Assembly (NCBI GenBank): GCA_948567375.1
Contig: OX419761.1
Coordinates: 47,406,243-47,470,242 of the forward strand
From: Lunularia cruciata
Lineage: Eukaryota > Streptophyta > Marchantiopsida > Lunulariales > Lunulariaceae
DNA: 64,000 nt
Reading direction: 5' to 3'
The translations under genes were made by a program, and so were the position numbers. Shown one piece after another: positions 1-49,975 of the stretch (position 1 is the first letter of the stretch; the number at the start of each line of letters is the position of its first letter). The notes under the pieces are model-generated. The model saw only the letters and a program-made list of their open reading frames with translations, was not told the DNA's origin and searched no databases.

Positions 1-1434
1 GGAGTACCTGATGGAGTACCTGCTAGTCAGCCACCTGCTACTACACAGACTGAGTCTAGCATGATGTTGGGGGCCGCTCAGCTGATTATGCGGCATCCTT
101 TATTTTCAGCCAGTGACATGTTTACATTGGGAGTTGACCCAGCCCCAGTGTTCCGGTTGGCTGCCACGTTGTGTGAGAGTAGGGATGGTGCAGTTCCTAC
201 TACTAGAGCAGAGGTGGTTGGTAGTGGAGCTGACTTGGTTGAGGAGCATGGGATCCGTTCAGCGACCAGTGGTTTATGGCAGGCAGCAGCGGCTAGACTG
301 GAGGAGTTGCCAGCTAGACCGGCCTTTGAGAGAGCGCGGTTTACACCTGGTGTTGTCCTATTGGATAACCAAAGGGGGATCTTTCGTTTGGTAGGACCTT
401 CAGGGAAGGTCTATACACCACAGAGAGTCTTGTTAGACTCTGGTGCGCAGCCCCTTATGTTGGGGAAGGCTGTAGTTGTTGGTCTGGAGTTACGGAAGAC
501 CGATATGGAGAGGTGTCCATTTCAGATCCAGACATCTCTTGGTGGTGGTTCGACACAGTACATCACACGTGGAGAGCTTGTTGTCCAGGTTCAGCCTGGT
601 CATCCGACTGATAGCTCGGTGGTGAGAGCTCAGGCTATTGCGACGATAGCTGAGTCCTATGATGTGCTAGTTGGGGGAGCAGTGTTATACCCTATGGGTT
701 TCAGTATTGACTATTGGGAGGAGACAGCCTCTTATAGACCTGGTTGGCAGTCTGGTGAGGGACGGGTATGTCGCCTACCAGTACGCTTTAGTAGTGGCAG
801 TCTTGGCTCACTACAGTCCGGGACCATGGCAGCATCAGTTTTGGCTTTCAGTGGTGCAGTTACTTGGCCTGGTGACTTGTTGGAGGGGAACGCCCATGCA
901 GAGGATACTCCAGTACCAGAGGAGATCACTCGGCTATGGAGTACGAGTGGGATTGTTCCATCCACCTTGGATGTTCCATTGTGGAGTTCAGAGGAGGCAT
1001 TGCAGCAGCATGCAGATCAGTTGGTGCAGCAGGCTTGGAGTGGAGCCTTCGTACCATCAGGGGATGAGTGTGAGGATGAGCCTCCAGAGGCGATTGCTTT
1101 GACACCTCTGGATACCACACTCATTGCTTGGCAGTATCCAGTAGAGGGGATATGTCTATTAGAGTTGTTTGGTGGGATCAGCACCGGACTAGCTGCGGTG
1201 TTACAGGCGGGTATCCGAGTACAGAGGTACTTGTATGTAGAGAGAGATGAGACTGCTAGGCGAGTCTCTCTACATCATGTGGCACACTTGGCCTATCGGT
1301 ATCCGGAGTTATTACCGATGTCAGCAGTCAGAGGTTACCAGAAGGCCTTACCAGGAGACATTTCCTTATTGGGGGCGCATGACCTAGAGAGACATGGGCC
1401 TATTCACTTGGTGATTTCTGGATGGCCATGTTAG
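1..1434 (+). pseudogene. Polyprotein part 1: retropepsin-like protease and N-terminal half of a C5 cytosine DNA methyltransferase
   Basis: The frame is open from base 1, so the start lies outside the window. An aspartic protease core is seen around 424-720: LLDSGAQ carries the DSGA active site and YDVLVGGAVLYPMG matches the later hydrophobic-Gly flap/core segment. A linker of about 130 residues follows. From about 1150 the frame shows methyltransferase motif I (LLELFGGISTG, the S-adenosylmethionine site), motif II (YLYVERDE), motif III-like GDISLL and motif IV GWPC with the catalytic Cys at 1429-1431. The next codon is TAG (1432-1434), in the place where the PCQ signature has Gln; CAG to TAG is one C-to-T change. 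The open frame resumes at once in the same phase. The domain resembles the Dnmt3/DRM branch in canonical motif order, not the permuted DRM order; subfamily placement is by eye. Confidence 0.87.
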
Positions 1435-2384
1435 GGACATACACGTGCGGGCCGCGGTTTGGGTCTTCAGGATCCTCGTTCTGGTGTGTTTTGGGAGATG
1501 TTACGGATACTACGACATCTCCAGGTTCATCAGTCTGTTTCTCCAGCTTACCTTTTGGAGAACGTTCCATTGATGGGTGATTCTCGCACTAGAGTGGTGG
1601 CGAGTACACATCAGGTCCATTCTTGGATGGGACTTGCTGTATTGTTAGATGCAGCCAGAGTGGGATCACGGGCTCATCGTCTTCGTCTTTGGTGGACGAA
1701 CCTTTTACCCAGAGAGGTTCTACAGCGTAGTTATGATGGGATTCAGCGACTAGACCACATTCTTGTTGATGATATCTTGGATGTTGGACGTCAGTCTCAG
1801 ACAGTGGTAGTGGCTGATAGGTCACCTATGGCAGTGGTGAACCTAGTTGGACAGCCTAGAGCTGCATTTCCCACACTCATGAGTTTCCCAGGCTCTCATG
1901 CTTTTCGAGAGGGAGGACCTGGACTTGTTTGGGACTCACAGTTACAGCAGTTGGTGGAGCCCAATGCTGATGAGAGAGAGCGGGCAATGGGTTTTCGCAC
2001 CGGTATTACCGTTGTTCTAGCAGTGTCAGAGGCATCCAGGCGTCAGGTGTTAGGTCAGGCTATGGACCTGAACTATTTGACCTGGATTGTGAGCCTTGGT
2101 TTGGCAGAGCAGCGTAGGATGCGCTTGATAGGCATCACCACTTGGACACTTGTGAGCCCTGTGCCTATCGAGACGATTCAAGCACATGCTGGGGGCAATG
2201 GACCGAGTGGACATGGTATTCTTGGGACACATCCAGTAGCTACTAGGGAGAGTGGTCTACTTGGAGTCCATCCAGGTGAGCGTGGGCTACTTGGATTACA
2301 CCCTTGGTCCACATGGGATGCAGCCAGAGGACGTATGGAGCTTGCAGCCAGAGTGGAGGGAGTTTTTCACACAGAGGTTGGGAC
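1435..2384 (+). pseudogene. Polyprotein part 2: C-terminal half of the C5 DNA methyltransferase
   Basis: This is the same frame as 1-1431, continuing after the amber codon with GHTRAGRG and DPRSGVFWEMLR. Motif VI is YLLENVPLMGDS (ENV at 1558-1566), motif VIII is SRAHRLRLWWTNL (about 1660-1700), followed by a target-recognition stretch, RERAMGFRTG (about 1975-2005) and motif X-like GQAMDLNYL (about 2053-2080). All motifs needed for SAM binding and cytosine transfer are therefore present in order. Such enzymes methylate carbon 5 of cytosine; in a retrotransposon the target could be its own cDNA or the insertion site, which is inference. After the domain come three spaced G(I/L)LGxHP repeats (2217-2305). 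The frame is interrupted at 2384 by element C. It is not a separate host gene, since protease and RT lie in one frame with it. Confidence 0.87.
2381..2384. repeat. Target-site duplication GGAC, left copy
   Basis: GGAC directly precedes the left LTR and recurs at 10214-10217 directly after the right LTR. Four bases match exactly when the LTR ends are placed at TG...CA; five bases would not match. Confidence 0.85.
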
Positions 2385-3076
2385 TGTAACACCCATTTGT
2401 GCATGTGTGTGGTATTGTGATATTTAGCTTGGTATTACAAGTACTTAAAAGATATTATTTATATAGAGATAAAGGATGGTTCTATATTAGTCATGGTTAG
2501 CTAAAGTTAGTCATAGCTAAGATAGATGGGACCTTACTTTAGAGGAAGTAGAAAAGATGAGCACCACTATTTTGGATTTTAGTGTGTTGACTTGGTATTA
2601 TTCCTAGGTGTTTGGCTTTGGGGAAAGAGTTGAGAACTCTTGGGCCTGCAAGCCTTTTTGTTTTGGATTCTTCTTTAGTCCAAGGATAGCCCATGTGAAG
2701 GAATCCTTGCTTTAGTGGTTGGGTCAAGATAAGACCACATGCTTAGGGGAATATGCCCATGTGAATGGATATTCCTTTCTACTTTTTGACTTTACTTGAC
2801 TTTTAGTCTAGTAACTTGAGTTACTACGGTAATTAGTAACTTTGGTACGTAACTATTTCACAAGTATATAAACAAGGAGTGAGGAGGTACTCATCATCCT
2901 TTCATTTGCAACTATCTCTCTCTCATTGAGTTCTCTAGTGAGCAATGTCTTGAGTCTTGGAGTGTTAGCCTTGGAGGAGTATGATGGAGTTGGGGTTCCT
3001 TGCCTTCTTAGTCCATGGTGCGCTACCATAATAGCCATCAGAGGTTCATCTTGAGTGAGAGACAGGCCGGCTCACA
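2385..3076 (+). repeat. 5' LTR of element C
   Basis: Begins TGTAACACCC and ends GGCTCACA; identical to 9522-10213 except for two T/C differences. It carries the promoter: a TATATAAA box lies at 2865-2872, about 210 bp before the LTR end. Confidence 0.96.
2865..2872 (+). promoter_or_regulatory. TATA box of element C LTR
   Basis: TATATAAA within CAAGTATATAAACAAGG; transcription would start about 30 bp downstream. The same box lies at 10002-10009 in the right LTR. Confidence 0.65.
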
Positions 3077-3080
3077 TTTT

Positions 3081-3098
3081 TGGTTCCGTTGCCGGGAC
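3081..3098 (+). other. Primer-binding site of element C (tRNA-Asp type)
   Basis: TGGTTCCGTTGCCGGGAC starts four bases after the 5' LTR. It resembles the TGGCGCCGTTGCCGGGGA type site complementary to the 3' end of tRNA-Asp, used by many Athila/Tat elements, with a few mismatches. Confidence 0.75.
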
Positions 3099-3117
3099 CT
3101 CTCTAGAAGGCAAGATA

Positions 3118-3288
3118 ATGTTCCGCGTCCAATTCTACATTAGGCAGAAGGAGGCTATGAGAGCTCACTTGGAGAGAACATTAGGAGAGGAGAGGGCTGA
3201 ACTTATGTTAGAGAACCAAGATCCATTTGTATACCCTGTAGTTCATTATGATGTCTTTGAGGTGATTTTGTACATCTTGTACACATGA
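3118..3288 (+). CDS. Short open frame after the primer site, gag-leader-like
   Basis: A frame of 56 codons from ATG 3118 to TGA 3286. The peptide includes FYIRQKEAMRAHLERTLGEE, which looks like the leader segment just after the primer site of elements D1 and D2 (IERTTGRE context). It may be the remains of the true N terminus of the gag precursor, now cut off by a stop, or a short leader ORF. No function can be assigned. The stretch 3289-3961 after it has no supported gene and reads as untranslated leader. Confidence 0.3.
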   Translation: MFRVQFYIRQKEAMRAHLERTLGEERAELMLENQDPFVYPVVHYDVFEVILYILYT

Positions 3289-3961
3289 GAGGAATTGGAG
3301 AGATTGTGTGAGGTGGATTGCAGATTTTGGGGATTAAGGTGATTTTGGGCAAAATCTAAAGTTTGAGATCTGGACTTGAGATTTCTACACATGATAGCTT
3401 GGGTTATCTTTCAGTTAGCACACTTGAAATTATTGAGAGAGCTTCTATGCGCACTGGGCTAGAATTTTTGAAAGTTGATAGGGTAAAGTGCTCCCGCAAC
3501 TGCATGCTCTCTGGAAAATTGTACAGAGTCTGCCATTTCTTCAATTTTTAGTGAATTGTCCTGAAAATTTCCAAGAAAATTCAGTGCATTGTATCCTACC
3601 TGGTGCCACAAAAATTAGAGAGAGATCATTTTTGCGAAGTGCGTTATGAGTTTTTGAAGTGAGGGGGGTGGTTTTCAGACCAAATCTGAAATATGGGTGC
3701 TGAATAGAAAGGTGTCTAGGCCAAATGGCTCGATGAAAAGATCTAAAATTTTTGCAGGGAGGGACGCCCTAGAGTTGTGATCAAGTGTGGAAAATTTCAG
3801 AGGACTGTGACATATTCGTTGAGAGATTTGAGTGACATTGTGAGGAAGGGTCAATTCTGCAGAGTGGAGATCTCATGCATGAGAAGTTTGAGATCAACAA
3901 AAAGCATGTTTGAGTGTTTAGATTCATCTTTGGGAACATGGAGGGTCATCAAGAGTAGAAA

Positions 3962-4411
3962 TTGAGATTATGCAAGGTTCCCCAAGGGTTTGAGGTGATT
4001 GTAGGGGTGGATTTGAGGAAAAGAGAGTTTACAATAGAATTTGAAGAGAGTGTTGAGAGGATCCAAAAACCTACACCACTTGGAGGAAAGAGTGAGTCTA
4101 AGTGCTTTCTATGTGGAGAGAAGGGACATAAGGCAAGTTCATGTCCATTAACCTTTGAGAGCAAGAGATTGAGGGAAAGGAGAGGCTTACTTGACTTGGG
4201 TTTGCATGTTGGACCTTCTTCACCAAGATTGGGAGGGAGAAGATCTAAGACCAAGGAGTTGTGTGAGGTTTGTGGAGTTGAAGGACTTCCAAAAGGACAT
4301 GAGTGTAGTGGAGTAAAAGCACTTTTGGAAACTTTGGTGAAGGATCTTGGAGAGAGTCTTAGTACAGCTACAGAAATACTACCACCTTCATCAGCTAGTT
4401 CTCAAGATTAG
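3962..4411 (+). CDS. Accessory open frame upstream of gag with zinc-knuckle motif (ORF1-like)
   Basis: An open frame of about 149 codons lying between the primer site and gag. It contains CFLCGEKGHKASSC, a CX2CX4HX4C knuckle, followed by a second Cys/His cluster (CEVCGVEGLPKGHEC). Such proteins usually bind RNA or single-stranded DNA. A TAG lies just upstream in frame and no ATG is visible near the start, so it is either a decayed ORF, a spliced exon, or starts at a non-ATG codon. Tat-lineage elements such as Ogre are known for an extra ORF before gag, so the position is suggestive. Product and expression are unknown. Bases 4412-4646 after it hold a purine-rich leader and no gene. Confidence 0.45.
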   Translation: MRLCKVPQGFEVIVGVDLRKREFTIEFEESVERIQKPTPLGGKSESKCFLCGEKGHKASSCPLTFESKRLRERRGLLDLGLHVGPSSPRLGGRRSKTKELCEVCGVEGLPKGHECSGVKALLETLVKDLGESLSTATEILPPSSASSQD

Positions 4412-4646
4412 CGATGGAGATAATCTTTCAACTTATGGATAAACTATCCATGAGAGTTAGATTAATATGCACTCTAGGATTTGATGTTGCTATAGAAATC
4501 TTGGAGCAACCTGAACCTTTTGTGTTCCCTAGAGTGGATTATTCTCAGATGGTGTTAGTCATGTATATACTCTATTAGTAATAGAGTGAGAGAAAAGAAA
4601 AGAGAAAAAAAAAATTAAGAGAAAAGAAAGATAGTGAGGGGTTAAG

Positions 4647-5243
4647 ATGGGGAAACTTCCGGTTTTCTTTGGCAAGGATGGAGAAGATGTGGAGGCCTTT
4701 GTGAGAGACTTCAAGAGAGCTTGCATAGGAAACAATGAGAGGAGGAAGAATGAGTGGGCCTCATTATTACCAGATTTCTTTGAGGATGCAGCACTTACAT
4801 GGTATGAGTCAGAATACCAAAAGAGAGAGAGGAGAGAGGGGGAAGAGGAGTCTTGGGAGACTTTGACTTCAGCACTCATTGAGAACTTTCTTCCTGATGA
4901 GAGTTATGAGAGATTGATGAGTGAGGTTACATTTCTCAAGCAAGGAGATGGAGAGAAAGTGAGAGTCTATGTGGAAAGAGTGGAAAAATTGGAGTCCAGA
5001 TTTCGCATAGTGTTGAGGAAGGGTGGGGATGATGTGGAGACTACAATGATTGGCATAGGGGCCATGCTCACCAAGAATTTTGTGGGAGGATTGAGACCAC
5101 AAATTAGAAGCAAGGTGAGATATGAGAAACCTTCTTCCAAGGTTGAAGCTATCAAGATCGCAATTCGTATGGAGGAGAGTTTGGAAGGGGATGAAAGTGA
5201 TTTGGTGGTGAAGGAGGTTGTGCATCCTCCTCAAGGCTACTAG
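4647..5243 (+). CDS. gag: Element C gag (capsid region), ends at an amber codon
   Basis: ATG at 4647 follows a purine-rich leader. The 198-residue product has the plant retrotransposon gag layout: MGKLPVFFGKDGEDVEAFVRDF near the start, ALTWYESE in the middle, then a charged helical part with LPDESYERLMSEVTFLKQ. It would build the virus-like particle that packages element RNA. The frame closes with TAG at 5241-5243, 21 bases before the next listed methionine-free open stretch, and the pol frame is in the same phase. The zinc knuckle that normally ends gag lies after this stop. A TAG here is therefore more likely a point mutation than the natural gag end; stop-codon readthrough is the alternative. 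Confidence 0.85.
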   Translation: MGKLPVFFGKDGEDVEAFVRDFKRACIGNNERRKNEWASLLPDFFEDAALTWYESEYQKRERREGEEESWETLTSALIENFLPDESYERLMSEVTFLKQGDGEKVRVYVERVEKLESRFRIVLRKGGDDVETTMIGIGAMLTKNFVGGLRPQIRSKVRYEKPSSKVEAIKIAIRMEESLEGDESDLVVKEVVHPPQGY

Positions 5244-8200
5244 TATGGTGGAACTTCTGATACTTTGGTGACAAGGGTTGCACCACAAGTAGTAGTTGCT
5301 CCAGTTCTTGCACCTCCACCAAAAGATCCACTCCAAACCATCACAGAACAACTTGCGGATCTCAAGATCAATGTGGTGCAATTATGGGAGAAGAGAGAGG
5401 TGGATCAGAATGTAGGGAGAGGGCCTAGGAGTTATGGAAACCATCCATATAGAGGAGGCCAACCAGCCAACAATTTCAATGATAGAAATTGTTTTGGTTG
5501 TGGGGGAAGAGGCCATATCCAAAGGAATTGCCCAAATTCCACTTACCATGGAGGAAGGGGTTATGAGGGAGCCAATAGAGGGAAAGAGGGAGGTAGTGAA
5601 ACCCAAGTGGCTCCTAATCCCAACAAAGGTAAGGGGATAGCATCCATAGATGTGGTTGAGAGCAAGTATGAGAAGGGAGAGTGCTCAAACTCCAAGGGTC
5701 CTAATTTGGAGCTTTTGGCACAAGAGAAGAAGAGAGCTCGTTTTGCAGAGGATGTTCACTCTTCTCAAGGATTTACTTCAAGCAAGGATACTCCTATGTC
5801 TACTAGGAGCACTCGCACCTCAACACCATCAACAACAAAGACTCCAAGGAAGAAGTTGGGGATGGAGGACTTCTTGATCTCCAAGCAACAATGGAACTAC
5901 AATGTGTTGGAGGATGTTGGTAGTCACAAGGCTAACATCACAGTGGGCCAATTAATTGCTTTGAACCCTACCTTGAGAAAGGAGCTTAGAGGTGGTTTGA
6001 GTTCTACAAGGAGCAAGAAGAAGAAGAAGGCAAAAGTTCCAATATCAATGGGGGTGGTGGATGCCAAGCCAGCACCATGGGAAGCTTGTGAATATGCCTC
6101 CAAGATTGATGTGAGAGTGAATGGTCACAACATCAAGGATGCATTGGTTGATGGAGGATCAGCAGTGAATGCCATGTCAGAAAGGTTGATGAAGAAGTTG
6201 GGTATGATACCCTCAAGAGCTTCAACATTTGTGGTGAGCATGGCAAACAAGCAACAAGTTCGACCAGTAGGAGTGATGGATAAGGTGGTAGTTTCAGTTA
6301 TGGGAGTTCAAAATCTCATGACTTTCCAAGTCTTGAAGGATTCAAGCTATGACTTACTTCTTGGGAGGCCATGGTTGAGAGCAGCACGCACAACTGATCG
6401 ATGGCACAAAGGGTACTTAAGGATTGGGCCATCAAACCATAGAGTCACTGTTCCTGTGACTAACACCACCAACACTTCACATTCAGATACCCCATCTTCT
6501 GATTATTGGGAATCTGATTCTGAAGGAGGAGCTTCAGGTGTGGACACAAGCATGGAAGAGGAGACTTCCACGGAGGAGGATGAATCTGAATCTGATTCAG
6601 ATGTGTATCCTTTGTGTGCTATGGATTTTGCACCTAAGCCAGAGGTTTTGAAGGACCCAGATAAATCACCATTGACACTTGAGGAGGTAGAGAGAAGGTT
6701 ATCTACCCTCAAGTATGGCCCAAATGTTACCAAGGAGGAGAAGGTGAGATTTGAGGAGATTTTCCGCAAGTTCATCCATGTGTTTGCTTTTAGTTACAAG
6801 GATTTGAAGGAAGTCACCTTGGAGGAGCACAAGATAGAGGTGGAGTCACATGCAAGACCAATCCGCCAAAAGCAACGTCGCATTAGCCCACCAATATCTT
6901 TGGTTGTGAAGGAGGAGATTGATAAGCTCAAGGAGGCTGGATTTATCTTTGAGGTGGAGAATTCAGAATGGGTGTCTCCAATTGTCATTGTGAAGAAAAA
7001 GAATGGCAAGCTTCGGGTATGTGTGGATTACAAGAAGCTCAATGTTGTTACCAAGAAGGACTACTACCCATTGCCATTCATTGATGAGATCTTGGAGGAG
7101 GTTGCAGGTCATGAGAGGTACAGTTTTGGAGATGGTTATAGTGGATATAACCAAATCAAGATTGCACCAGAGCATCAACAACTCACCACATTCACCACAC
7201 CTTGGGGAACTTACGCTTTCAAGGTCATGCCTTTTGGGCTTTGCAATGCTCCAGCCACATTCCAACGGTTCATGAACAAGGTATTTGAACCTTTCATTGG
7301 GAAATTTGTGAGAGATTTCATTGATGACTTTTGTGTCTATGGGAGCAAGGAGGAGCACTTTGAGCACCTAATCAAAGTCTTGCAACGCTTGGATGAAGCA
7401 AATGCATCACTCAACCCAGAGAAGTGCATTTTTGGATGTGAAGAAGGTCTACTTTTGGGGCACATCATCTCCAAGGATGGAATAGCAGTTGATCCTGAGA
7501 AGGTGAGGAAAATCTCAGACCTTCCATTCCCTTCAAGCTTGACAAAGTTACGCCAATTCTTGGGAATGGTTGGGTACTATAGGAGGTTCATCTTCTCATT
7601 TTCCAACAAGGCTTATGCATTGACCATCTACATGAAGAAGGGTGTAGATTACATGGTGATTTTGGAAGACAAGGAGGCTCTCAAAGCTTTTGAGGAGCTC
7701 AAGCAATCCCTTGTTGTAGCTCCAATTCTTGCTAAACCTGATTGGAGTAAGCCTTTCATCCTCTACACTGATGCTTCTAATGTAGCTATAGGATGCACTC
7801 TTAGTCAATTAGACCAAGATGGGCATGATCATCCAATAGCTTATGCTAGTAGGCAGATGGTTTCAGCAGAGAAGAACTACTCTGTCACAGAGAGAGAAGG
7901 GTTGGCAGTGATCTTTGGTCTCAAGAAGTTTAGACACTACTTGATTGGAGGGAAAGCCACAATTGTCACGGATCACAAGGCTTTGAAGTACATCTTCAAC
8001 AAGCCTAATGTTGAAGGGAGACTAGCAAGGTGGATGATTCTCTTGTCTGAGTATGACTACACAATTGAGGATAGGCCAGGAAAGAAACATGCAAATGCTG
8101 ATTTGTTATCTAGAGCCTATGATCATGATGGAGATGAGCCAGTAGATGATTCCTTCCTGGATGAGGAGCTCATGACAATCTCAGTCACTCAAGAGGTTCC

Positions 8201-9473
8201 AATGGAGTACAAGGAGATTGTGGATTTTGTGACAAGAGGTAACTATCCAGAAGGGATGCATGCTAGGGAGAGGAAGGCCCTTGCAGCAAGATCTAGACCT
8301 TACACAATGGTGGATGATATTCTTTTTCACCAAGGAGCAGATGGTCTACTTCGAAGAGCAGTGGGTAAGGAAGAGTCTATCCTACTCATAAAGGAGTTTC
8401 ATGAAGGTTTAGTATGTGGAGGACACTTTGCAGGAAAGGTGACTGCTTTCAAGATTCTAGATGCAGGTTACCATTGGAGAGGGATTTTCAAGGATTGTCT
8501 TGATTATTGCAAAACTTGTCATGTTTGTCAAGCTTTTGCTAGAAAGTCTACATCCACTCCACCACTTAGATCAATTCCATTGCTAGGACCCTTTGAGAAG
8601 TGGGGAATTGATTTTGTAGGACCTCTCAATAGAACCCCAAGGAACAATCGGTACATTGTGGTAGTTACTGATTACCTTACCAAATGGGTTGAGGCTAGAC
8701 CATTGAGGGACAAGAATGAAGATGAAGTGGGTAGATTTCTTTATGAACGTATTATCACTAGGTTTGGATGCCCTTTGGAGTTGGTTTCTGATAGAGGAGG
8801 AGAGTTTACAGGAAGCATTACTACAGCCATGCTACGACATTTCTCTATCACACATAGAGTAACTACATCCTATAAGCCAAATTCCAATGGCTTGGCAGAG
8901 AGAACCAATCAGACCTTGTGCATGATGTTGGCCAAAGATGCAGAAATGGAGGGGGCTAAACATCATTGGGACAAGAGGATTCATGCAGTTTTGTGGGAGT
9001 ATAGGACAACCATGAAGACTTCCACTGGATATTCTCCATTCCAATTGGTGTATGGTATTGAGTCTACCTTACCTATTCACTTTGATCTTCCTACCTTCCA
9101 AAGCATTCATAGGAGATTGAAGAAAGCACAAGGAAGTGATGCAGAGAAGTCAAGGAAGGATCAACTCATGGAGTTGGAAGAGGCAAGAGCAGTTGCTATG
9201 GTTCGAGTGGAGCAAGCCCAAAGGAAACAAAAGGAGAGCTATGACAAGAGGCAAGGCAAGAAGAAGGTGGAGCCTTTCAAAGAAGGTGATTGGGTAATGT
9301 TGTTTGATTCCATTCGATTCAAGAGAGTACAAAAGAAGTTTTTGCCTAAGTACTTTGGACCTTTCATAGTAGAGAAGGTGTGGGGAAATTACACTTATGA
9401 TCTCAAGGAGTTGGGAGGAAGACACTTTGATAGGATTAACCATGATAAGTTGAAGATGTACCATAGAAGGTAG
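5244..9473 (+). CDS. pol: Element C pol: zinc knuckle, protease, RT, RNase H, integrase (intact 1,402-codon frame)
   Basis: The open frame is in phase with gag; residue numbers below count from codon 5265. A CX2CX4HX4C knuckle (CFGCGGRGHIQRNC) is at 76-89. Protease has VDGGSAVN with Asp 296; the DGGS form is usual in Athila/Tat proteases. Reverse transcriptase spans about 520-700 with FIDDF (Asp 687, 688). RNase H starts near YTDAS (Asp 836). Integrase has the HHCC domain from His 1054 (GGHFAG ... CKTCHVCQ) and catalytic D1116, D1176, E1212, a D-59-D-35-E spacing. The C-terminal part (EGDWVMLFD ... YFGPFIVEKVWGNYTYDL) is the usual GPF/Y-type end; no chromodomain is seen. All catalytic residues are intact, so this frame could supply enzymes if translated with gag. 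Confidence 0.95.
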   Translation, partial: YGGTSDTLVTRVAPQVVVAPVLAPPPKDPLQTITEQLADLKINVVQLWEKREVDQNVGRGPRSYGNHPYRGGQPANNFNDRNCFGCGGRGHIQRNCPNSTYHGGRGYEGANRGKEGGSETQVAPNPNKGKGIASIDVVESKYEKGECSNSKGPNLELLAQEKKRARFAEDVHSSQGFTSSKDTPMSTRSTRTSTPSTTKTPRKKLGMEDFLISKQQWNYNVLEDVGSHKANITVGQLIALNPTLRKELRGGLSSTRSKKKKKAKVPISMGVVDAKPAPWEACEYASKIDVRVNGHNIKDALVDGGSAVNAMSERLMKKLGMIPSRASTFVVSMANKQQVRPVGVMDKVVVSVMGVQNLMTFQVLKDSSYDLLLGRPWLRAARTTDRWHKGYLRIGPSNHRVTVPVTNTTNTSHSDTPSSDYWESDSEGGASGVDTSMEEETSTEEDESESDSDVYPLCAMDFAPKPEVLKDPDKSPLTLEEVERRLSTLKYGPNVTKEEKVRFEEIFRKFIHVFAFSYKDLKEVTLEEHKIEVESHARPIRQKQRRISPPISLVVKEEIDKLKEAGFIFEVENSEWVSPIVIVKKKNGKLRVCVDYKKLNVVTKKDYYPLPFIDEILEEVAGHERYSFGDGYSGYNQIKIAPEHQQLTTFTTPWGTYAFKVMPFGLCNAPATFQRFMNKVFEPFIGKFVRDFIDDFCVYGSKEEHFEHLIKVLQRLDEANASLNPEKCIFGCEEGLLLGHIISKDGIAVDPEKVRKISDLPFPSSLTKLRQFLGMVGYYRRFIFSFSNKAYALTIYMKKGVDYMVILEDKEALKAFEELKQSLVVAPILAKPDWSKPFILYTDASNVAIGCTLSQLDQDGHDHPIAYASRQMVSAEKNYSVTEREGLAVIFGLKKFRHYLIGGKATIVTDHKALKYIFNKPNVEGRLARWMILLSEYDYTIEDRPGKKHANADLLSRAYDHDGDEPVDDSFLDEELMTISVTQEVPMEYKEIVDFVTRGNYPEGMHARERKALAARSRPYTMVDDILFHQGADGLLRRAVGKEESILLIKEFHEGLVCGGHFAGKVTAFKILDAGYHWRGIFKDCLDYCKTCHVCQAFARKSTSTPPLRSIPLLGPFEKWGIDFVGPLNRTPRNNRYIVVVTDYLTKWVEARPLRDKNEDEVGRFLYERIITRFGCPLELVSDRGGEFTGSITTAMLRHFSITHRVTTSYKPNSNGLAERTNQTLCMMLAKDAEMEGAKHHWDKRIHAVLWEYRTTMKTSTGYSPFQLVYGIESTLPIHFDLPTFQSIHRRLKKAQGSDAEKSRKDQLMELEEARAVAMVRVEQAQRKQKESYDKRQGKKKVEPFKEGDWVMLFDSIRFKRVQKKFLPKYFGPFIVEKVWGNYTYDLKELGGRHFDRINHDKLKMYHRR

Positions 9474-9511
9474 AGAGACCTTCACTTTGAGGACAAAGTG
9501 AAAACTTAGTC

Positions 9512-9521
9512 CGGGGGTAAA
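9512..9521 (+). other. Polypurine tract of element C
   Basis: GGGGGTAAA directly precedes the 3' LTR and is the expected plus-strand primer site. Confidence 0.75.
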
Positions 9522-10213
9522 TGTAACACCCATTTGTGCATGTGTGTGGTATTGTGATATTTAGCTTGGTATTACAAGTACTTAAAAGATATTATTTATA
9601 TAGAGATAAAGGATGGTTCTATATTAGTCATGGTTAGCTAAAGTTAGTCATAGCTAAGATAGATGGGACCTTACTTTAGAGGAAGTAGAAAAGATGAGCA
9701 CCACTATTTTGGATTTTAGTGTGTTGACTTGGTATTATTCCTAGGTGTTTGGCTTTGGGGAAAGAGTTGAGAACTCTTGGGCCCGCAAGCCTTTTTGTTT
9801 TGGATTCTTCTTTAGTCCAAGGATAGCCCATGTGAAGGAATCCTTGCTTTAGTGGTTGGGTCAAGATAAGACCACATGCTTAGGGGAATATGCCCATGTG
9901 AATGGATATTCCTTTCTACTTTTTGACTTTACTTGACTTTTAGTCTAGTAACTTGAGTTACTACGGTAATTAGTAACTTTGGTACGTAACTATTTCACAA
10001 GTATATAAACAAGGAGTGAGGAGGTACTCATCATCCTTTCATTTGCAACTATCTCTCTCTCATTGAGTTCTCTAGTGAGCAATGTCTTGAGTCTTGGAGT
10101 GTTAGCCTTGGAGGAGTATGATGGAGTTGGGGTTCCTTGCCTTCTTAGTCCATGGTGCGCTACCATAATAGCCATCAGAGGTTCATCCTGAGTGAGAGAC
10201 AGGCCGGCTCACA
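9522..10213 (+). repeat. 3' LTR of element C
   Basis: Same length (692 bp) as the left LTR and differing at two positions by reading. Ends CTCACA, then GGAC target duplication and element M sequence. Confidence 0.96.
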
Positions 10214-10217
10214 GGAC
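10214..10217. repeat. Target-site duplication GGAC, right copy
   Basis: Matches 2381-2384. Element M resumes at 10218 in the reading frame interrupted at 2384. Confidence 0.85.
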
Positions 10218-11009
10218 CTCTAGTGGTCGGGAGCATGACACCATTGCTCCCAAGGGCCCAGTGTAGCAGCCAGTCAGTACGTCTTCCACTCCTACTACAG
10301 TTACAGAGGATACTTGGGAGCCAGATCTTGGACCCAAGCTTACTGGAGAGGAAAGACGGAGGGTTTGGAGGTTCTTGAGGAGTCACACGAGTTGTTTTGC
10401 CTTCAGTATGAAGGATTTGGGTGCTCTGAAGGGACCTGGTATACGGATTGAGCTGACTAGCGACACACCTGTTTTCCGACGTCCTTATCGATATAGTGAG
10501 ATGGAGAGGACATTGATTCAGAGCCGGAGTAGTGACCTTTTTGAGGCTGGTTTGGTGGAGATTTCACATGGAGAGTATGCATCAGCGACAATGATGCCAA
10601 CCAAGAAGGATATGCATGGCAACTATACAGATAGGCGGATGTGTGGAGATTACCGTCCTATCAACCAACAGACTAAGGCTGATCGGTATGCCATGCCTAC
10701 ACCGGAGGAGATTTTTGATGCGATTGGGCATGCAAAGGTCTTCAGTACTTTGGATCTTCGAGCGGGATATCATCAGTTGCCGATCAGGGAGGAAGATAAG
10801 TCCAAGACAACATTTTGGGCTATTGATCCTCATGGCAAGGATGTGTTATATCAGTGGAGATTCTTACCATTTGGGTTGAAGAATGCTCCTGCTGAGTTCC
10901 AGAGGGTCATGGATAGGATCCTAGCTGGACTGGATTTTGCTCGGTGCTATATTGATGACATTTTGGTGTATAGCACTACTGTGGAGGAGCATGAGAGACA
11001 GTTGTTGGA
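10218..11009 (+). pseudogene. Polyprotein part 3: linker and reverse transcriptase of element M
   Basis: Continues the methyltransferase frame. One TAG at 10264-10266 (next to a CAG) interrupts the linker; the RT core is open from about 10375. Seen motifs are the template-grip region (MCGDYRPINQQTKADRYAMP), FSTLDLRAGYHQLPI, FLPFGLKNAPAEFQRVMD and the catalytic box YIDDILVYS near 10950. The RNA-dependent DNA polymerase role is clear from these. The YIDDI box and this motif wording differ from the IDDF elements C and D, so element M is a separate gypsy lineage. Near 11010 the phase shifts by one base (the downstream frame starts inside the end of this one), consistent with a single-base deletion. 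Confidence 0.9.
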
Positions 11010-13004
11010 GTGTTTGAGAGGTTGAGATCTCATGGACTCAAATTACATCTTGGGAAGTGTAGGTTCTTCCATGAGCAGGTTGAGTATTTGGGTCACACTA
11101 TCTACCCCGGAGGACTTGGTGTTCAGCAGACCAAGGTGGAGGCTATTGCACGTATTCCTCGGCCTACGGATGTGAGCAGAGTGCGAGCATTCCTTGGGTT
11201 GGCGAACTTCTATCGCCGCTATGTTAGAGGATTTAGTGCCATTGCCAAGGCCTTGACAAAGCTGACCAAGCTTACACAAGAGTGGTGTTGGGGAGATGAG
11301 CATGAGAGAGCTTTTGTAGAGCTCAAGGAGAGGTTGACATCTGCTCCTATTTTGAGGAGACCGATCAGGGGACGACCATTTCAGGTTCACACTGATTGGA
11401 GTATGTTGGGGCTTGGAGCGGTGCTCACCCATCATGATGATGAGGAGAAGGAGTTTGTGGTGGCCTATGCTAGTCGCTCCAACAATTCAGCGGAGGTGAA
11501 GTATAGTTCATATGAGGGAGAGTGCTTGGCAGCAGTTTGGGCAGTAGCACATTTCCGATGTTACCTATTTGGTAACCCCTTTACTCTCATCACTGATCAT
11601 CAACCGCTGAAGTGGTTGATGGAGTCCGACAAGCTTTCAGGGAAGCTTGCACGATGGGCTCTGATTTTACAGGAGTATGATTTCACGGTTGTTCACAGAC
11701 CTGGAGTGGTGAACCGTGATGCAGATGGGTTGAGTAGAAACCCATGTCCCAGCCAGCAGGATCAGACCGGAGCACGTTGGCATGGTGAGACAGATGAGGA
11801 GATGGTGCCAGGTTGGCATGCATCAGCCTTTCTGTGTATATTTGCAGAGACATTGGTGGTATCTCTCTCAGCACATACAAGAGGAGTTATTGAGGTCATA
11901 GATCCAGAGAGTGAAGATATTGGTACAGTTCAGCGAGACATTCATGATGATGTCTTAGTGATGGACTATCTTCGCACTGGTGTTGTGGGTGGCACAGTTG
12001 GGGCCAAGGAGAGAGACAGTGTTCTTCAGCGAGCCAGACGGTTCAGATTGGAGGGTAGACACCTTTTGCGTGTATGGGAGGATGGTAGAGTGCGAGTAGT
12101 ACCACTTCCATCACAGAGACCACAGTTGGTCCATCATGCTCATGAGGAGCTAGGACATTTTGGAGTAAAGCGTACATATAGCTTACTCCAGAGTCATTAT
12201 TGGTGGCGCGGTATGCAGACCGAGGTACAGCAATTTGTTGCCAGATGTGTGGTTTGTGACCGAGTTAGAGCATCATTCAATGCTCCTACGCCACAGTTAC
12301 ACCCATTACCTATCATGGGATTGGGTTACCATTGGAGTTTGGACTTTGCCGGACCTTTACCGCTGACTATGAGACATCATCGGTATGTTTTGGTGATGGT
12401 GGAGCACTTCTCCAAGTGGATTGAGTTGGTGGCACTTCCTGACAAGTCTAGTGAAGGGACAGCTTACTCGTTCCTGGATCGAGTTCTTAGTCATTTTGGT
12501 GCACCAGCTGAGGTTTTGACTGATCAGGGTATAGAGTTCTTGGGAGAGTTTCAGGTCTTGTGTGACAAGGCTTTGATTGATCATCGTACTACATCTCGAG
12601 ATCACCCTGAGGCAGATGGCTTAGCAAAGAGAGTGGTTCAGACGGTGAAGAGAGGATTGCGAAAGTATGGTTTGCAGAGAGGCCACTTGGGAGATTGGGA
12701 TCTCCAGTTACCTTGGTTGGCCATGGGCTATCGGTTCAGCCGGCAAGCCTCCTTAGCATCCTTCTCTCCATACTTTCTACTCTATGGACGAGATCCAGAT
12801 TTACCTATAGCCATTCGTCGAGATGCTACTGTAGTTTTGGACTTGGATGACCCTAATGTATGGATGAGCGCATGTTCTCAGCGGGCAGAGATCTTTCGGA
12901 GAGTGATGCCAATGGCCTTCAAGAACTTGGCGATTGCTCAGCATAGAGATACTTTACGCTATGCTACCATTCAAGGAGGAGGTTATAGACCCTCGATCCG
13001 TTGA
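11010..13004 (+). pseudogene. Polyprotein part 4: RT C terminus, RNase H and integrase of element M
   Basis: Starts with RLRSHGLKLHLGKC and FLGLANFYRRYV (RT thumb/connection). RNase H follows with FQVHTDWSMLGLGAVL, YEGECLAAVWAV, ITDHQPLKW and the closing ADGLSRNP. Integrase has the HHCC zinc domain (HEELGHFGVKRTY ... CVVCDR), then the catalytic core with Asp at 12342 (SLDFAGP) and Asp at 12522 (LTDQGIEF). The third acidic residue is replaced by Lys at 12627 (GLAKRV), so strand transfer should be lost; GAG to AAG would be a G-to-A change. The frame ends at TGA 13002, which fits CGA to TGA, and continues beyond in the same phase. Confidence 0.9.
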
Positions 13005-13379
13005 TTTCATCCAGGCGACTATGTATATCTACAGCAGACAGCACCAACGACACTTGATGTTTCTACAGGCCGCACTATCTTGAGAGTGCGCGAGGTTTTG
13101 CCATCTAGAGTCCTTGTGTTAGAAGGACGTGATGGTGTTTTTTGGAAGGATCATGTGCGCAATTGTGCGCCATGCCACCTCCCAAACATTGATGGTACTA
13201 TGGACCCAAGCTTGGCACTTGTACGTGCAGGCTTGAGGTGTATGTTATGTGGCTCTTCTGGTGGAGCTGCTACTATGTTAGTGTGTGATAGTTGTTCGAG
13301 AGGATGGCATATGGCATGTATGACTCCTCCTCTCACGGTGGTTCCTCAAGGACAGTGGTTATGTCCTAGATGTACTTGA
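13005..13379 (+). pseudogene. Polyprotein part 5: integrase C-terminal tail and PHD finger of element M
   Basis: In phase with the integrase. The tail reads FHPGDYVYLQQ, then ILRVREVLPSRVLVLEGRDG and NCAPCHLPNIDG. It is followed by a C4HC3 zinc finger: CMLC at 13239, CDSC, GWHMAC, and CPRC ending at 13373, with the aromatic LVCDSCSRGWH core and PPL...VPQGQW typical of PHD fingers. The polyprotein ends at TGA 13377-13379. PHD fingers generally read the methylation state of the histone H3 tail; here the finger would replace the chromodomain of chromoviruses as a possible integration-targeting module. That role is inference. Element M thus has a DNA methyltransferase and a PHD finger in one polyprotein. 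Confidence 0.9.
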
Positions 13380-14228
13380 CCTATAGCTAGTTCATTCTTG
13401 ATATGGTATAGATTGCAGACAGGCGACTAATGATGGGGCTCCATAGCACCCGGCCTCCTGATCTTTGCCCATTAGAGGGTATACCATATACTTAGAGTAG
13501 ATGGCTATCTGGAGTTAGAGGGACCTAACCGCCAGCTAGGGAGGCGATTGTGTCACTTTAGAGTCTATGTATGACTTATGTGTGAGTTGTGCTTTTATAG
13601 TGTATGATGTTGACAGCGATGTATGTTGTGTAGCGATGTATATACGCACGACAGCTGTCACGCCATTTGTAGTTCCGCATCTAGATGCTCGGACACTGGA
13701 GTTTATAGTGATGGTAGTTAGAGTTATTCTAGCTGTTTCTCAGGGACTACTTTCCGACGGTTAGATTTCGTGTTTGGGGTACTGACTTCACGGTGGGGCC
13801 CACCGTCACTTTGCACCGTTTGCACCGTCGAGTGTGCCGTCAGCGGGACCATTAGGGTTTCAGGGCTAGCTCGAGTCCAGGGGGTATAGTTTTGAAGTGA
13901 GCTCCAGAGAGCTCACTTCTTTGATGTTGAGCCTTCGAGTTCCTGGCTATGGTGGACAGAGGTCGGCGAGCGTCACCTGGATTCTCTATGCTTGAGTGGG
14001 TGTGGCTTGACTGTAATCAGTGCCCAATTGTTGGCAGTTTATAGAGTGACAGATCAAGTACTGATCTGAGTTGAGTTGAGTTGAAAGTGTTAAGCAATCT
14101 GATTGATTGTGGCACTTTAGAGTCTATGTATGACTTATGTGTGAGTTGTGCTTTTATAGTGTATGATGTTGACAGCGATGTATGTTGTGTAGCAATGTAT
14201 ATTGTGTAGCGATGTATATACGCACAAC
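13380..14228. other. Noncoding 3' region of element M, probable LTR material
   Basis: No gene is supported. The stretch holds a 118-125 bp direct repeat (13546 and 14105), a near-palindrome at 13790-13806 (ACGGTGGG, one base, CCCACCGT) and a perfect 11-bp hairpin at 13894-13919 (arms GAAGTGAGCTC, loop CAGA). It should include the 3' untranslated region and at least part of the 3' LTR of element M, but no LTR ends can be proved inside the window. Confidence 0.5.
13546..13663 (+). repeat. Direct repeat, copy 1 (559 bp apart)
   Basis: Starts GATTGTG(T)CACTTTAGAG and recurs at 14105 with few differences. Likely the start of an LTR or LTR-internal duplication. Confidence 0.8.
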
Positions 14229-14229
14229 A
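14105..14229 (+). repeat. Direct repeat, copy 2
   Basis: Matches 13546-13663, with an extra short tandem GTAGC(A/G)ATGTATAT unit near its end. It stops where family A gag sequence starts, so the copy is cut by an insertion or recombination. Confidence 0.8.
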
Positions 14230-14427
14230 CTCTCCAAGTACTTTAGTCGCAGGTACTGGGTTTTGAGACGGCTCTTCTTCTTGCATGGCTTGATCGTTCC
14301 TGAGGATCTGCACTTGACTTTGCAATGTCTCCATGGTCATCTTAATCTCTCGAAATTCATTCAACATCCCTTGCATTCCTTGCACCAGCTCTTGCAACTG
14401 CGGATCCATGGTTCCTACAACACCCAA
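14229..14427 (-). pseudogene. gag: Family A gag, N-terminal fragment
   Basis: The minus frame encodes MDPQLQELVQGMQGMLNEF (start at 14409; another ATG at 14427), a helical, Gln-rich opening typical of plant chromovirus gag proteins. After about 60 residues the frame runs into element M sequence, so the gene is truncated. The next 570 bases upstream are leader down to the primer site, which supports the start. Confidence 0.65.
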
Positions 14428-28170: not shown

Positions 28171-31100
28171 CATTCTCCCATTGCTTGTTGGTGATATCTT
28201 TGCTGCCATGGAATCTTCAAACTCCTAGATGACCTTTTGCGCATTGTGGAGATGAGAAAGAGGCTCCCATGTGGTATCATGGAGGACATACTCTTTTCAA
28301 AGGACTTTGTATTCAAGGTGTTATTGTCGGCCATGTTGGATGCTACAACATGCAAAGATATGATCAACTTCATACTCCTCATGATTGTTGATAGGTACTA
28401 CGTTGAGTGTTTGGTCCCTAAAACTTTGCATGGTGTAGTTTCCAAATGTTTTAGAAAAGTTGTGTCCTTATTGGAGCCAACATTTGATAGGCAAGTCATG
28501 TTTGCCACAAGCTCATGGGATTCTACCAGAACTTTTAGAAACCAACCTCAATGGTCCAAGTACTTTTGCACTAAATGGGTGGTTTTTCCATCTAAAATTT
28601 CCGCAAGATAGGTTCTATGTTGTTCTTCATCAATATGGAAACTACATCAACTACTTTCACAAGTGGGCTCATGTTCTTTGAAGAATGAGTGGTTTTAGCT
28701 TTTCCATACTCATGGACACTCTTAATATCAAGCAAGTTAATTCTCATCACCTAGAATTACTATATTTATGACTTGAAACACAACTTAAACCAATGGCTTG
28801 TTTTTGGTGTTGGTGACAATGGAATGCTACACCGTGCTTCTGATGCAACTTGTATGGGGAAAGCAAATGACTTTGGTTGCCACTTCATTCATAACATCTC
28901 TACCCAAGGTTTCATCCTAGAGCATCTCCAAAAGGATCTTGGAACTACTTTTTTTTTGACTCTGATGATTGAACATGCATGGTGGAGGGGCTTTGAGGTC
29001 TGGATCATTTTTGAAAGTGTCAAATTCTTGTTTGAATGCAAGATCAGAATGTAGTTTAGGTTAGTGAGTTGAGGTTTGAGTTGTTGACATGGGATGGGAG
29101 AATGAAAGGGTTGGATACAAAATGAAGATGGATTAGAAATGTAGGGTTTCAACTTTGAAATATGAAAGATAGGGTGGATTCACACATGATTAGGCAAGGC
29201 AAGACAATTCAGCAAGCAACATGAAAAATAATTTGGGTAACATCAAATGGACCTATCTAATTAGGGGTAAGTTCATAAACTTGGGTATCAAGTGGGAAGT
29301 GCAAGTTACTACAAGAAAGTATGCCCTTATCACTTAGTTGAAAGGTGAGATCTTGATGATGTTGATCAACATATTGCTTTTGGATTTTGAGCAATGAGGA
29401 AATGAGATTTGGCTTGTAGACAAGAAGGTAGAAGTATGCAGAATGTGAGACAACAAAGTAGCAAGAAGGGAATTTGAAACAAGTGGGTCTTGGCCAAAAT
29501 CAAGGAAGAAAGGAGAGAATCTTGTGCTTGCCTACTTGGAGTTATTGTAGGTAAACTCAAGAGCCACAAGGCAAGCATCCCAATTGGTATGGTAAATTTT
29601 TACAAAGGCACAAAATATATCTTCCAAGGTACATTTTGCATGTTTGGTTTACCCATTAGTTTGAGGATGATAGGCCATAGACAAAGCAAGCTTGGTGCCA
29701 AGTGGCTTGAAGAGTACTTGGCAAAATTTACCAATGAATCAAGGATCACGGTCAAGATGAGAACCCTTAGCATCCCATGGTGCTTGAAGATAATATCAAA
29801 GTAAATCTTGGCTAGCATTGGAGCATCCATGGTGGATGCCAAATGAATATGCTTGCTAAGTTTATTGACAAACACCACAATGGTGGTATAGCCTTGATCT
29901 GTGTTGGTAAGGATGTGATGAAGTCAAGACTTACATGTTCCTATCAGGTATTGGAATGGGAAGTGGTTGAAGAAGTTCACCTAGTTTTTGGTTGCTAACT
30001 TTGTTGCATTGGCAACTCTCTCAAGATCAAACAAACTCTTGAACTTCTTATGCCATGTTTGGCCACCACCATTGATGTTGGAGTGTACTTAGGCTTTTAT
30101 CTACACCTAAATGACCAATGATTGGTAAGTCATGGGCTTCTTGAAGCTACAAAAGCCGAAAGTCATCCATAGTTGGAACATAGATCTAATTCTCACAAAA
30201 TAAAGGACCCTCCTTGAAAGAAACGTGTTGTAATTCTTGTCATGCATTGCAAAACAATTTTGTAACAATTGAAAAAAGAAGTCCTATTGTAAAGCAATCT
30301 TGAATGCCATGTATACGTTTGAGTTAGTTGACACCATGGTGATTGTTGCTACCATGAGAGAGTTAGGAATAAGCTTCAAATCAAGATGTTGTGATTAGGC
30401 ATTGTGAATGACATGGAACCTTGAGTTTTTACTCAAGCATGATCAAAAGACTATAGGTTTTGCTCCTACCAATGATGTTTGTTTATGATTGGTTTGTATG
30501 ATCATTTGTTTCTCCAAGAGATAATACCTCCATACCTTTGCTGCATATACCATTGCTAATTGTTCTTTATCTTGAGTAGAGTAATTCCTTTCTACAATGT
30601 TTAGTTGATGAGACATAAAGGCAATGGGATGTAACTCATATGAAAATTCTTGCTACAACACAACTCCAATAGCAAATTTAAAAGCATCAAAATAAACACA
30701 CAAGGTAATTGAGAATAATATGGCTAGAAGGTTGGTCATAAAGACACCATCTGCTTCAATTTCTTGAATGCTTCTTTGTGCTTGGTTGTCCACTAAAAAA
30801 TTGAGGTCTTCCCCATGATTTTAATCAATAGTGCAATCACATGAGCATAATAGCAAGTGAAAAATTGGTAAAAACTTACCAATTCATTAAATACTTTCAC
30901 TTTTGTGACATCCTTCAAAGTAAGCCAATTGGTTATGGCTTTGATTTTCTCCTCTTCTATCTTGCTCCCTTTTGATAAGACTTTATGATCCAAGAAGGTA
31001 ACTTTCTTTTCCCAAGTGTACATTTTGACTTTATGTAGTAAAAATTCCATTGGCATATTCATCTTAGGACTCTTATACATGATTGTTGTGTTTTTGTCTC

Positions 31101-49973: not shown

Positions 49974-49975
49974 AG

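What the first reader, a model, noticed from the sequence alone, without database searches (positions are those of the whole stretch)
1..13379. A Ty3/gypsy polyprotein that carries its own C5 DNA methyltransferase
Protease, a methyltransferase with motifs I, II, IV, VI, VIII and X in order, and RT/RNase H/integrase are in one reading frame once the nested element C is set aside. DNMT capture by retrotransposons has been published for dinoflagellates and charophyte algae (de Mendoza and colleagues, 2018); I do not recall it for a land plant with this kind of genome. An element that methylates cytosines could mark its own cDNA or its insertion site, changing how the host sees it.
Basis: partly seen in the sequence, partly recalled or inferred. 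Interest (0 to 1): 0.93.

Follow-up and report, generated by a model that had tools for sequence, protein, structure and literature searches.

The report
Liverwort jumping gene carrying DNA methyltransferase
A retrotransposon present in many copies in this plant genome, probably a liverwort, carries its own DNA-methylating enzyme; relatives of this kind occur from green algae to mosses and liverworts, and here the enzyme ends just before a stop signal of the leaky type, which suggests that it is made together with the particle proteins.

Summary
The domain is real and the junctions are not chance. The window holds the 3' two thirds of a ~9.9-kb Ty3/gypsy element, gag-PR-DNMT then RT-RH-INT-PHD, split by a young nested gypsy element (2385-10217). 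The DNMT is DNMT3-like with unrearranged motif order. The host genome has at least several hundred copies; 17 of 20 copies sampled by their integrase carry the DNMT in place. Relatives with this order occur in Marchantia, Calypogeia and Sphagnum, and a second order (RT-RH-DNMT-INT-PHD) in chlorophytes; in my tree the retrotransposon DNMTs form one clade. Two corrections. (1) DNMT and RT are not one open frame: 34 of 34 copies read have an in-frame UAG between them, in 33 followed by CARYYA, the tobamovirus-type leaky-stop context; 633 of 644 exact-flank matches genome-wide read TAG. So the DNMT is probably made with Gag-protease, and RT-IN by readthrough. (2) Ends are DIRS-like split repeats (A-coding-B-A-B), yet 9 of 9 copies have 4-bp target duplications, as a DDE integrase makes. 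The kind was published for a charophyte alga in 2018 (KnitGypsy-Dnmt3); one 2019 paper says land plants lack it. This copy is dead; activity and readthrough are untested.

The parts
1..1080 (+). 3' part of ORF1: aspartic protease (DSGA at 430-450) and linkers; gag itself lies upstream of the window (ATG near L039:7441)
   Evidence: PR profile built from relatives E 1.7e-120; Pfam itself does not call the protease here, nor the gag pieces, but calls the protease in relatives P0020 and P0212
1144..2193 (+). DNMT3-like cytosine-5 methyltransferase domain, motifs I-IV-VI-VIII-IX-X in unrearranged order
   Evidence: 71-73% identical to P0001-P0003
1432..1434 (+). in-frame TAG right after motif IV in this copy (decay of this copy; not shared by the other 33 copies compared)
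2385..10217 (+). nested young gypsy element without DNMT (LTRs 2385-3076 and 9522-10213, gag 4638-5243, pol 5244-9473) plus 4-bp duplication GGAC
10264..10272 (+). in-frame UAG between DNMT and RT with CAGCCA after it (CARYYA leaky-stop motif), common to the family
   Evidence: 34 of 34 copies TAG; 633 of 644 places with the same exact flanks
10267..11025 (+). ORF2 N-terminus and reverse transcriptase; first ATG only at codon 48
   Evidence: PF00078 E 5.3e-21
10995..13004 (+). rest of RT, RNase H, integrase (H2C2 + rve); frame shifted against 10267-11025 in this copy, ends in TGA
13239..13373 (+). C-terminal PHD finger
   Evidence: PF00628 E 9e-12
13546..13653 (+). repeat B1 (ends GACA); followed by 2-nt spacer GC 13654-13655
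13656..14104 (+). repeat A2 (449 bp); A1 is at L039:5472-5919, 96.7% identical
14105..14229 (+). repeat B2, the true 3' end of the element
14230..14233 (+). 3' copy of the 4-bp target duplication CTCT (5' copy at L039:5468-5471)

Best explanation
A Ty3/gypsy-type retrotransposon family of a land plant that has carried a DNMT3-derived methyltransferase for a long time. Shown by sequence: domain order gag-PR-DNMT / UAG / RT-RH-INT-PHD; split direct repeats A-coding-B-A-B; ends TGTC...GACA with 4-bp target duplications; at least several hundred copies; constraint on the DNMT. Inferred: (a) most ribosomes stop at the UAG and make Gag-PR-DNMT, a minority read through and make RT-RH-IN-PHD, so the methyltransferase is made at Gag level and enters the particle; (b) it methylates cytosines, most likely CG as DNMT3 enzymes do, on the cDNA or on newly inserted copies; (c) the internal B1-A2 junction holds both complete termini and lets reverse transcription restore the ends, after which the DDE integrase inserts the DNA; (d) the PHD finger reads a histone tail to choose sites. 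The window copy itself is dead.
For: Family and order. Carriage: 17 of 20 integrase-sampled copies; 644 exact junction flanks; 1006 integrase places at up to 1 mismatch; 123 PF00145 places, a few of them host genes. UAG: in frame in 33 of 33 loci measured, TAG in 34 of 34 with the window, CARYYA next in 33 of 34; TAG in 633 of 644 exact-flank places, the flank with CAGCCA being fixed by the pattern; CARYYA after UAG is the type I readthrough motif (PMC5382211, passages); of the 47 codons between UAG and first ATG, those from about the 12th-17th on match Marchantia and Sphagnum proteins; of 24 relatives with a readable motif X among P0001-P0052, 20 end in the linker before RT. Ends; 4-bp duplication in 9 of 9. 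Constraint: variants shared by copies have N/S over opportunity 0.29 in DNMT and 0.32 in PR, singletons 0.53 and 0.82; 26 of the 62 best copies have no stop in the PR-DNMT match. One retrotransposon-DNMT clade, 99/100.
Against: No activity, expression or translation data. In de Mendoza et al. 2018 the isolated K. nitens domain did not methylate yeast DNA (they call it inconclusive; PMC5890265 section 10). Near-fixation of the UAG within one genome can come from descent alone, and its DNA could not be read in other species. Relatives are mixed: 4 of the 24 (Marchantia P0007, P0009, P0012; Sphagnum P0038) are models that run on from DNMT into RT, spliced or truly open, and the 20 that end do so 28-156 residues after motif X (119 here), some perhaps cut by contig ends. 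Algal relatives P0208, P0212 and Closterium P0228 have DNMT and RT in one open frame. Metagenome ORF2 relatives P0173 and P0176 begin with their own Met ahead of the conserved part, so a separate start is possible there. One of 34 copies breaks CARYYA; 2 of the first 100 listed junctions carry TAA. No RNA structure after the stop (z +0.78). The 30 loci behind the selection count were the best-scoring ones.
Confidence: 0.57

Rival explanations
1. The UAG is a defect of a master copy: the family is non-autonomous and was multiplied in trans by another element; no readthrough occurs.
For: Copies are close relatives (30 loci 97.7-98.5% identical to the window), so one defect could be shared by descent; no RNA structure after the stop; some relatives run on from DNMT into RT.
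Against: The context is the type I readthrough motif; 20 of 24 relatives with a readable motif X also end in the linker before RT; codons after the UAG but before the first ATG match proteins of other species.
Confidence: 0.18
2. The methyltransferase domain is kept for something other than DNA methylation: RNA methylation, or nucleic-acid binding and targeting.
For: The isolated K. nitens domain was inactive in yeast, and RNA methylation was suggested for a LINE DNMT (PMC5890265).
Against: PC of motif IV is kept in 90% or more, EN of motif VI in every row, of the 28-row alignment; best structural relatives are DNMT3A/B/C (29 best hits), tRNA enzymes score E 0.8 or worse.
Confidence: 0.17
3. 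Host DNMT gene or pseudogene next to unrelated gypsy pieces; the junction is chance.
For: The window copy is interrupted and has several lesions.
Against: Uninterrupted copies elsewhere (34 loci); 17 of 20 integrase-sampled copies carry it; host DNMT3 pieces have motifs in different frames, as across introns, the host DRM is permuted, and both fall outside the retrotransposon clade.
Confidence: 0.01
4. The DNMT serves self-restraint: methylating its own copies lowers transposition cost to the host, rather than hiding the cDNA.
For: Copies show a strong deamination footprint at CG and CHG (transitions per site and copy 0.030 and 0.025 against 0.006 at CHH); discussed as a possibility in PMC5890265.
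Against: CHG methylation is host CMT work (recalled); a DNMT-less young element in the same genome also has raised CHG transitions (0.012 against 0.0016 at CHH), so at least the CHG part is not specific to DNMT carriers.
Confidence: 0.12

Closest known systems
KnitGypsy-Dnmt3 of Klebsormidium nitens (de Mendoza et al. 2018, PMC5890265; abstract, sections 9-11 and passages seen)
   Same: Gypsy enzymes, non-permuted Dnmt3 in the polyprotein, DIRS-type repeats, purifying selection on the DNMT
   Different: Here: land plant, at least several hundred copies (the paper says K. nitens has fewer copies than Symbiodinium), DNMT ahead of a UAG common to the family, 4-bp target duplications documented, PHD finger ('PHD' occurs 0 times in the main text of that paper).
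SymbioDIRS-Dnmt3 of dinoflagellates (PMC5890265)
   Same: Dnmt3 in a retrotransposon polyprotein and A-coding-B-A-B repeats
   Different: Tyrosine recombinase and DIRS RT instead of DDE integrase and gypsy RT
Chlorophyte gypsy-PHD elements with DNMT between RNase H and integrase (e.g. P0166, P0169 of Haematococcus)
   Same: DNMT of the same clade, gypsy RT, integrase, PHD finger
   Different: DNMT sits after RNase H, not between protease and RT; Pfam itself does not call the DNMT in P0056 and P0166, my profile and the precomputed domains of several others (e.g. P0062-P0064) do
Host DNMT3, DRM and CMT-like genes of this plant (L001, L004; L002; L003)
   Same: C5 methyltransferase family
   Different: Motifs spread over frames as across introns; DRM permuted (PDB DRM2 E 1.6e-103); DNMT3 and DRM outside the retrotransposon clade. 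The short CMT-like fragment L003 fell inside that clade on a very long branch in a first tree (support 0.62) and was left out.

Membership tests
Ty3/gypsy (Metaviridae-type) retrotransposon | gypsy-type RT, RNase H and DDE integrase in the order RT-RH-INT | tested here: met
   RT tree places it among green-lineage gypsy RTs
Ty3/gypsy (Metaviridae-type) retrotransposon | two full-length direct long terminal repeats | tested here: not met
   repeats are split, A-coding-B-A-B, in the window and the 8 usable sampled copies, one of them with a partial B2: gypsy enzymes with DIRS-like ends, so I call it gypsy-type by its enzymes only
Ty3/gypsy (Metaviridae-type) retrotransposon | integration with a short (4-6 bp) target duplication | tested here: met
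   4 bp in 9 of 9
DIRS order | A-coding-B-A-B split repeats | tested here: met
DIRS order | tyrosine recombinase, no target duplication | tested here: not met
   rve/H2C2 integrase and 4-bp duplications
KnitGypsy-Dnmt3-type elements | non-permuted Dnmt3-type DNMT in frame with a gypsy polyprotein | tested here: met
   (in frame, but with a UAG between DNMT and RT)
KnitGypsy-Dnmt3-type elements | DIRS-type arrangement of repeats | tested here: met
   legend of Fig. 4c of PMC5890265
KnitGypsy-Dnmt3-type elements | DNMT and RT in one open Pol ORF | tested here: inconclusive
   a UAG separates them here; the exact K. nitens layout is in a figure that is not held
KnitGypsy-Dnmt3-type elements | common descent with the K. 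nitens DNMT | not testable with these tools
   no K. nitens DNMT is among the hits listed (53 and 54 list only the best 120); K. nitens RTs P0196, P0215, P0227 lie on another branch of the RT tree
Active C5 DNA methyltransferase | PC (IV) and ENV (VI) motifs | tested here: met
   alignment A1
Active C5 DNA methyltransferase | methylates DNA | not testable with these tools

The most novel reading that the evidence does not exclude
One capture of a DNMT3 early in the green lineage founded a large clade of gypsy-PHD elements that still live in chlorophytes, zygnematophytes and bryophytes; the domain moved once within the polyprotein (between protease and RT in one branch, between RNase H and integrase in the other). 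In liverworts the gene order plus a leaky UAG makes the methyltransferase a Gag-level component of the particle that methylates the element's own DNA before or at integration, while RT and integrase are the minor readthrough product.
Probability: 0.33. Interest if true: 0.8.

Novelty: new variant of a known kind. Interest (0 to 1): 0.62.

Why it matters
Retrotransposon-borne methyltransferases were reported from dinoflagellates and one charophyte as independent, lineage-bound events, and one paper states that land plants lack them (PMC6338049). Here such a family is a high-copy resident of a land-plant genome and has relatives in Marchantia, a model with genetics and methylomes (recalled), so the open question of what these enzymes do for the element or to the host methylome becomes directly testable. 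The Gag-side position with a leaky-type stop predicts how much enzyme is made and where, and gypsy enzymes with DIRS-like ends and 4-bp duplications suggest that split repeats can serve a DDE integrase.

Tried and rejected
Rejected: chance junction. Rejected: the window's A2 repeat as an ordinary 3' LTR; the sequence after it is repeat B again, in 7 of 8 sampled copies in full and in the eighth in part, judged by eye. Rejected: non-templated spacer at B1-A2; among the first 100 listed of 655 places it is GC 71, AC 13, GT 9, AT 4, TC 2, GA 1 (the 100 pairs were typed from the list), which CHG deamination explains for all but 3. Not informative: RNA folding after the stop. Led nowhere: viral-contig scans (the one hit L040 is a phage-type methylase); structure prediction (not available). 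A DNMT-less control element (16 loci, one of them the window's own copy) shows CG transitions 2 in 704 site-copies against CHG 28 in 2304, while in the DNMT family CG is as high as CHG. This hints at extra CG methylation of DNMT carriers but rests on 2 events, different ages and different CG content, so I do not use it. Looked at without use for the readthrough motif: passages of PMC8310308 and PMC9841425. A first domain survey used an integrase profile in the wrong frame and was redone. A first junction count used a wrong regular expression and was redone.

I lowered the main confidence from 0.60 to 0.57, the novel reading from 0.35 to 0.33, and raised the defect rival from 0.15 to 0.18.

Rows dropped: L006 (gap) from the substitution counts (33 of 34 used); L005 (partial); 2 of 10 sampled copies without a recognisable repeat at one end; 22 type-C rows and the CMT-like fragment from the tree; type-C rows above P0090 (three excepted) from the tree, and a block of type-C rows from the RT tree.
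Full report
WHAT IS THERE. Window 1-2384 encodes an aspartic protease and a DNMT3-like C5 methyltransferase in one frame, broken by one in-frame TAG. Pfam PF00145 passes its cut-off only when the two halves are read together with X at the stop (E 2.1e-6; first half nothing, second half 0.019). Of solved structures the 29 best hits are all DNMT3A, 3B or 3C; HaeIII methylase (0.0068) and DRM2 (0.026) follow. The motif order I-IV-VI-VIII-IX-X is unrearranged, unlike the host's own DRM (L002). From 10267 on come RT, RNase H, integrase and a PHD finger. Between them lies a nested gypsy element, 2385-10213 plus a GGAC duplication; no DNMT was found in it, its LTRs are 99.7% identical, and its family is young (15 other loci, chosen as best protein matches, 99.05-99.78% identical to the window copy over 4.0 kb).

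THE FAMILY IN THE HOST. The window is G000:C11:47406243-47470242 of a 565.8-Mb assembly in 74 contigs. Window 1-2384 matches all 30 loci fetched with P0001 over its whole length (one to base 2383) at 97.7-98.5% identity, and all 34 loci printed continue at once into RT where the window has its insert. Counts are lower bounds: 123 PF00145 places, a few of them host genes, 644 exact junction flanks, 655 exact B1-A2 junctions, 1006 integrase 31-mers at up to 1 mismatch. To test whether family members lack the domain, I took the 20 exact integrase matches listed on contig C1 and read 451 bp at the distance where the DNMT should be: 17 of 20 had it (one over only 85 bp); of the other three, two showed RT/RNase H sequence of the same kind of element and one another gypsy element, by eye.

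NOT ONE FRAME: A UAG COMMON TO THE FAMILY. In 33 of 33 loci measured the DNMT and the RT side are in the same frame but separated by TAG, and with the window 34 of 34 have TAG; the next six bases are CAGCCA in 32, CAGCTA in 1, CAGCCT in 1. Genome-wide, of 644 places with the same exact flanks (the flank fixes CAGCCA) 633 have TAG; among the 100 places listed the two exceptions are TAA, the other nine were not seen. UAG followed by CARYYA is the type I readthrough signal of tobamoviruses and others (PMC5382211, passages). The first in-frame ATG after the UAG is codon 48; from about codon 12-17 on the stretch before it matches Marchantia (P0012, P0009) and Sphagnum (P0038) proteins, so it is coding in relatives. 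Of 24 relatives among P0001-P0052 with a readable motif X, 20 end in the linker before RT, 28-156 residues after motif X (own copies 119; Marchantia P0002 90, Calypogeia P0003 92), and 4 run on into RT (Marchantia P0007, P0009, P0012; Sphagnum P0038). These are gene models or contig ORFs whose DNA I could not read, so the comparison across species is mixed. I infer readthrough. It is not shown, and within one genome the near-fixation may be descent.

ENDS. A 449-bp repeat A lies at the 5' end (L039:5472-5919) and again near the 3' end (13656-14104), 96.7% identical. But the 3' A is flanked on both sides by a second repeat B (13546-13653 and 14105-14229), and sampled copies agree. This is A-coding-B-A-B, which PMC5890265 describes for DIRS elements and, in the legend of Fig. 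4c, for the K. nitens gypsy-Dnmt3. The true ends, TGTC...GACA, are flanked by identical 4-bp duplications in 9 of 9 copies (window and 8 of 10 sampled from C1; the other two lacked a recognisable repeat at one end). That is the mark of a DDE integrase, not of a tyrosine recombinase (recalled). A1 against A2 distances (Kimura) are 0.032 in the window and 0.0185-0.057 in the 8 others (two of them over part of the repeat).

SELECTION AND DECAY. In 33 copies, over 2.4 kb, transitions per site and copy are 0.030 at CG, 0.025 at CHG, 0.006 at CHH and 0.0028 at A/T: copies carry the footprint of cytosine methylation. Of 45 in-frame stops in 34 copies, 33 are TAG where most copies have CAG. Variants shared by two or more copies have N/S over opportunity of 0.29 in the DNMT and 0.32 in PR; singletons 0.53 and 0.82. 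With transversions alone the numbers are too small to tell shared from single in the DNMT (0.49 and 0.51). So the DNMT looks constrained in the lineages that multiply, about as much as PR. 30 of the loci were the best-scoring ones, so the absolute values are biased downward.

RELATIVES AND TREE. One search found 52 relatives, among them Marchantia polymorpha, Calypogeia fissa, Sphagnum, Monoraphidium and unnamed metagenome proteins. (best 120 listed of 154 and of 2576) added Haematococcus, Volvox and Closterium. By my profiles, of the 285 proteins held, 60 have DNMT after PR and/or directly before RT/RH (one, P0042, ambiguous), 134 have it after RT/RNase H or directly before integrase, 9 have DNMT alone and 82 none; one search was seeded with the second type, so these are not frequencies. 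In the IQ-TREE analysis (70 rows, 336 columns) the retrotransposon DNMTs form one clade (99/100) apart from host DNMT3, DRM and DNMT3A; the second order forms one clade (100/100) nested in the first. In a first tree with FastTree the same clade had 0.895 and took in a short CMT-like host fragment on a very long branch, which I then left out. The RT tree puts the window with Calypogeia P0171 and in one clade (1.0) with the chlorophyte type; other PR-DNMT-RT elements are scattered deeper. This suits one old capture and one later move, but the reference set is small, the backbone within the clade is weak, and K. nitens DNMTs are missing.

LITERATURE. PMC5890265 (abstract, sections 9-11, passages) reports DNMTs in dinoflagellate DIRS and LINE elements and in K. 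nitens gypsy. [quoted passage not shown] PMC12344493 (passages) repeats the earlier report for streptophytes and dinoflagellates. PMC6453930 (passages) on moss DNMT3 does not mention them in what I saw. Seven searches of the held library and one on split repeats showed me no report for bryophytes in their listings; subscription journals are mostly not held.

HOST. A liverwort is my inference from the nearest relatives and from at least eight chromosome-sized contigs.

VERDICT. Real, and a new variant of a published kind. The dead window copy adds little by itself; the family adds the land-plant host, the Gag-side position ahead of a leaky-type UAG, DDE-type insertion with DIRS-like ends, and a common clade with chlorophyte elements of another order.

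Noticed in passing
window 2385-10213: The nested gypsy element belongs to a very young, very abundant family: 104 scored places at 100% (rounded) protein identity over 400 aa, many with open frames of 1611 aa; strongly CG-depleted coding part (CpG observed/expected 0.12) against 0.44 in PR-DNMT.
   Followed up: partly
window 2385-10213 against 1-2384: CG transitions look relatively rarer in the DNMT-less nested family (2 in 704 site-copies) than in the DNMT-bearing family, where CG equals CHG. Too few events to interpret.
   Followed up: partly
P0044, P0056, P0166, P0169 and relatives: Gypsy-PHD polyproteins of chlorophytes (where named) carry the DNMT between RNase H and integrase, a second position for the same domain clade.
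   Followed up: partly
P0023 and P0173: A DNMT-ended ORF and an RT-INT-PHD ORF come from contigs of the same length (6232 bp), possibly one contig, which would mean that ORF1/ORF2 separation also occurs outside liverworts.
   Followed up: no
window 49894-51557: Tandem array with a unit of about 152 bp, next to integrase remains of another gypsy element at 48994-49401.
   Followed up: no
window 39843-43857 and 54541-58592: Two copies, 92-97% identical in stretches, of another gypsy-like element on the minus strand, with a more distant third at 29195-31765.
   Followed up: no
L001, L004 (G000:C7 and C1): Two host DNMT3-like genes with motifs spread over frames, as across introns, apart from the retrotransposon clade.
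   Followed up: partly
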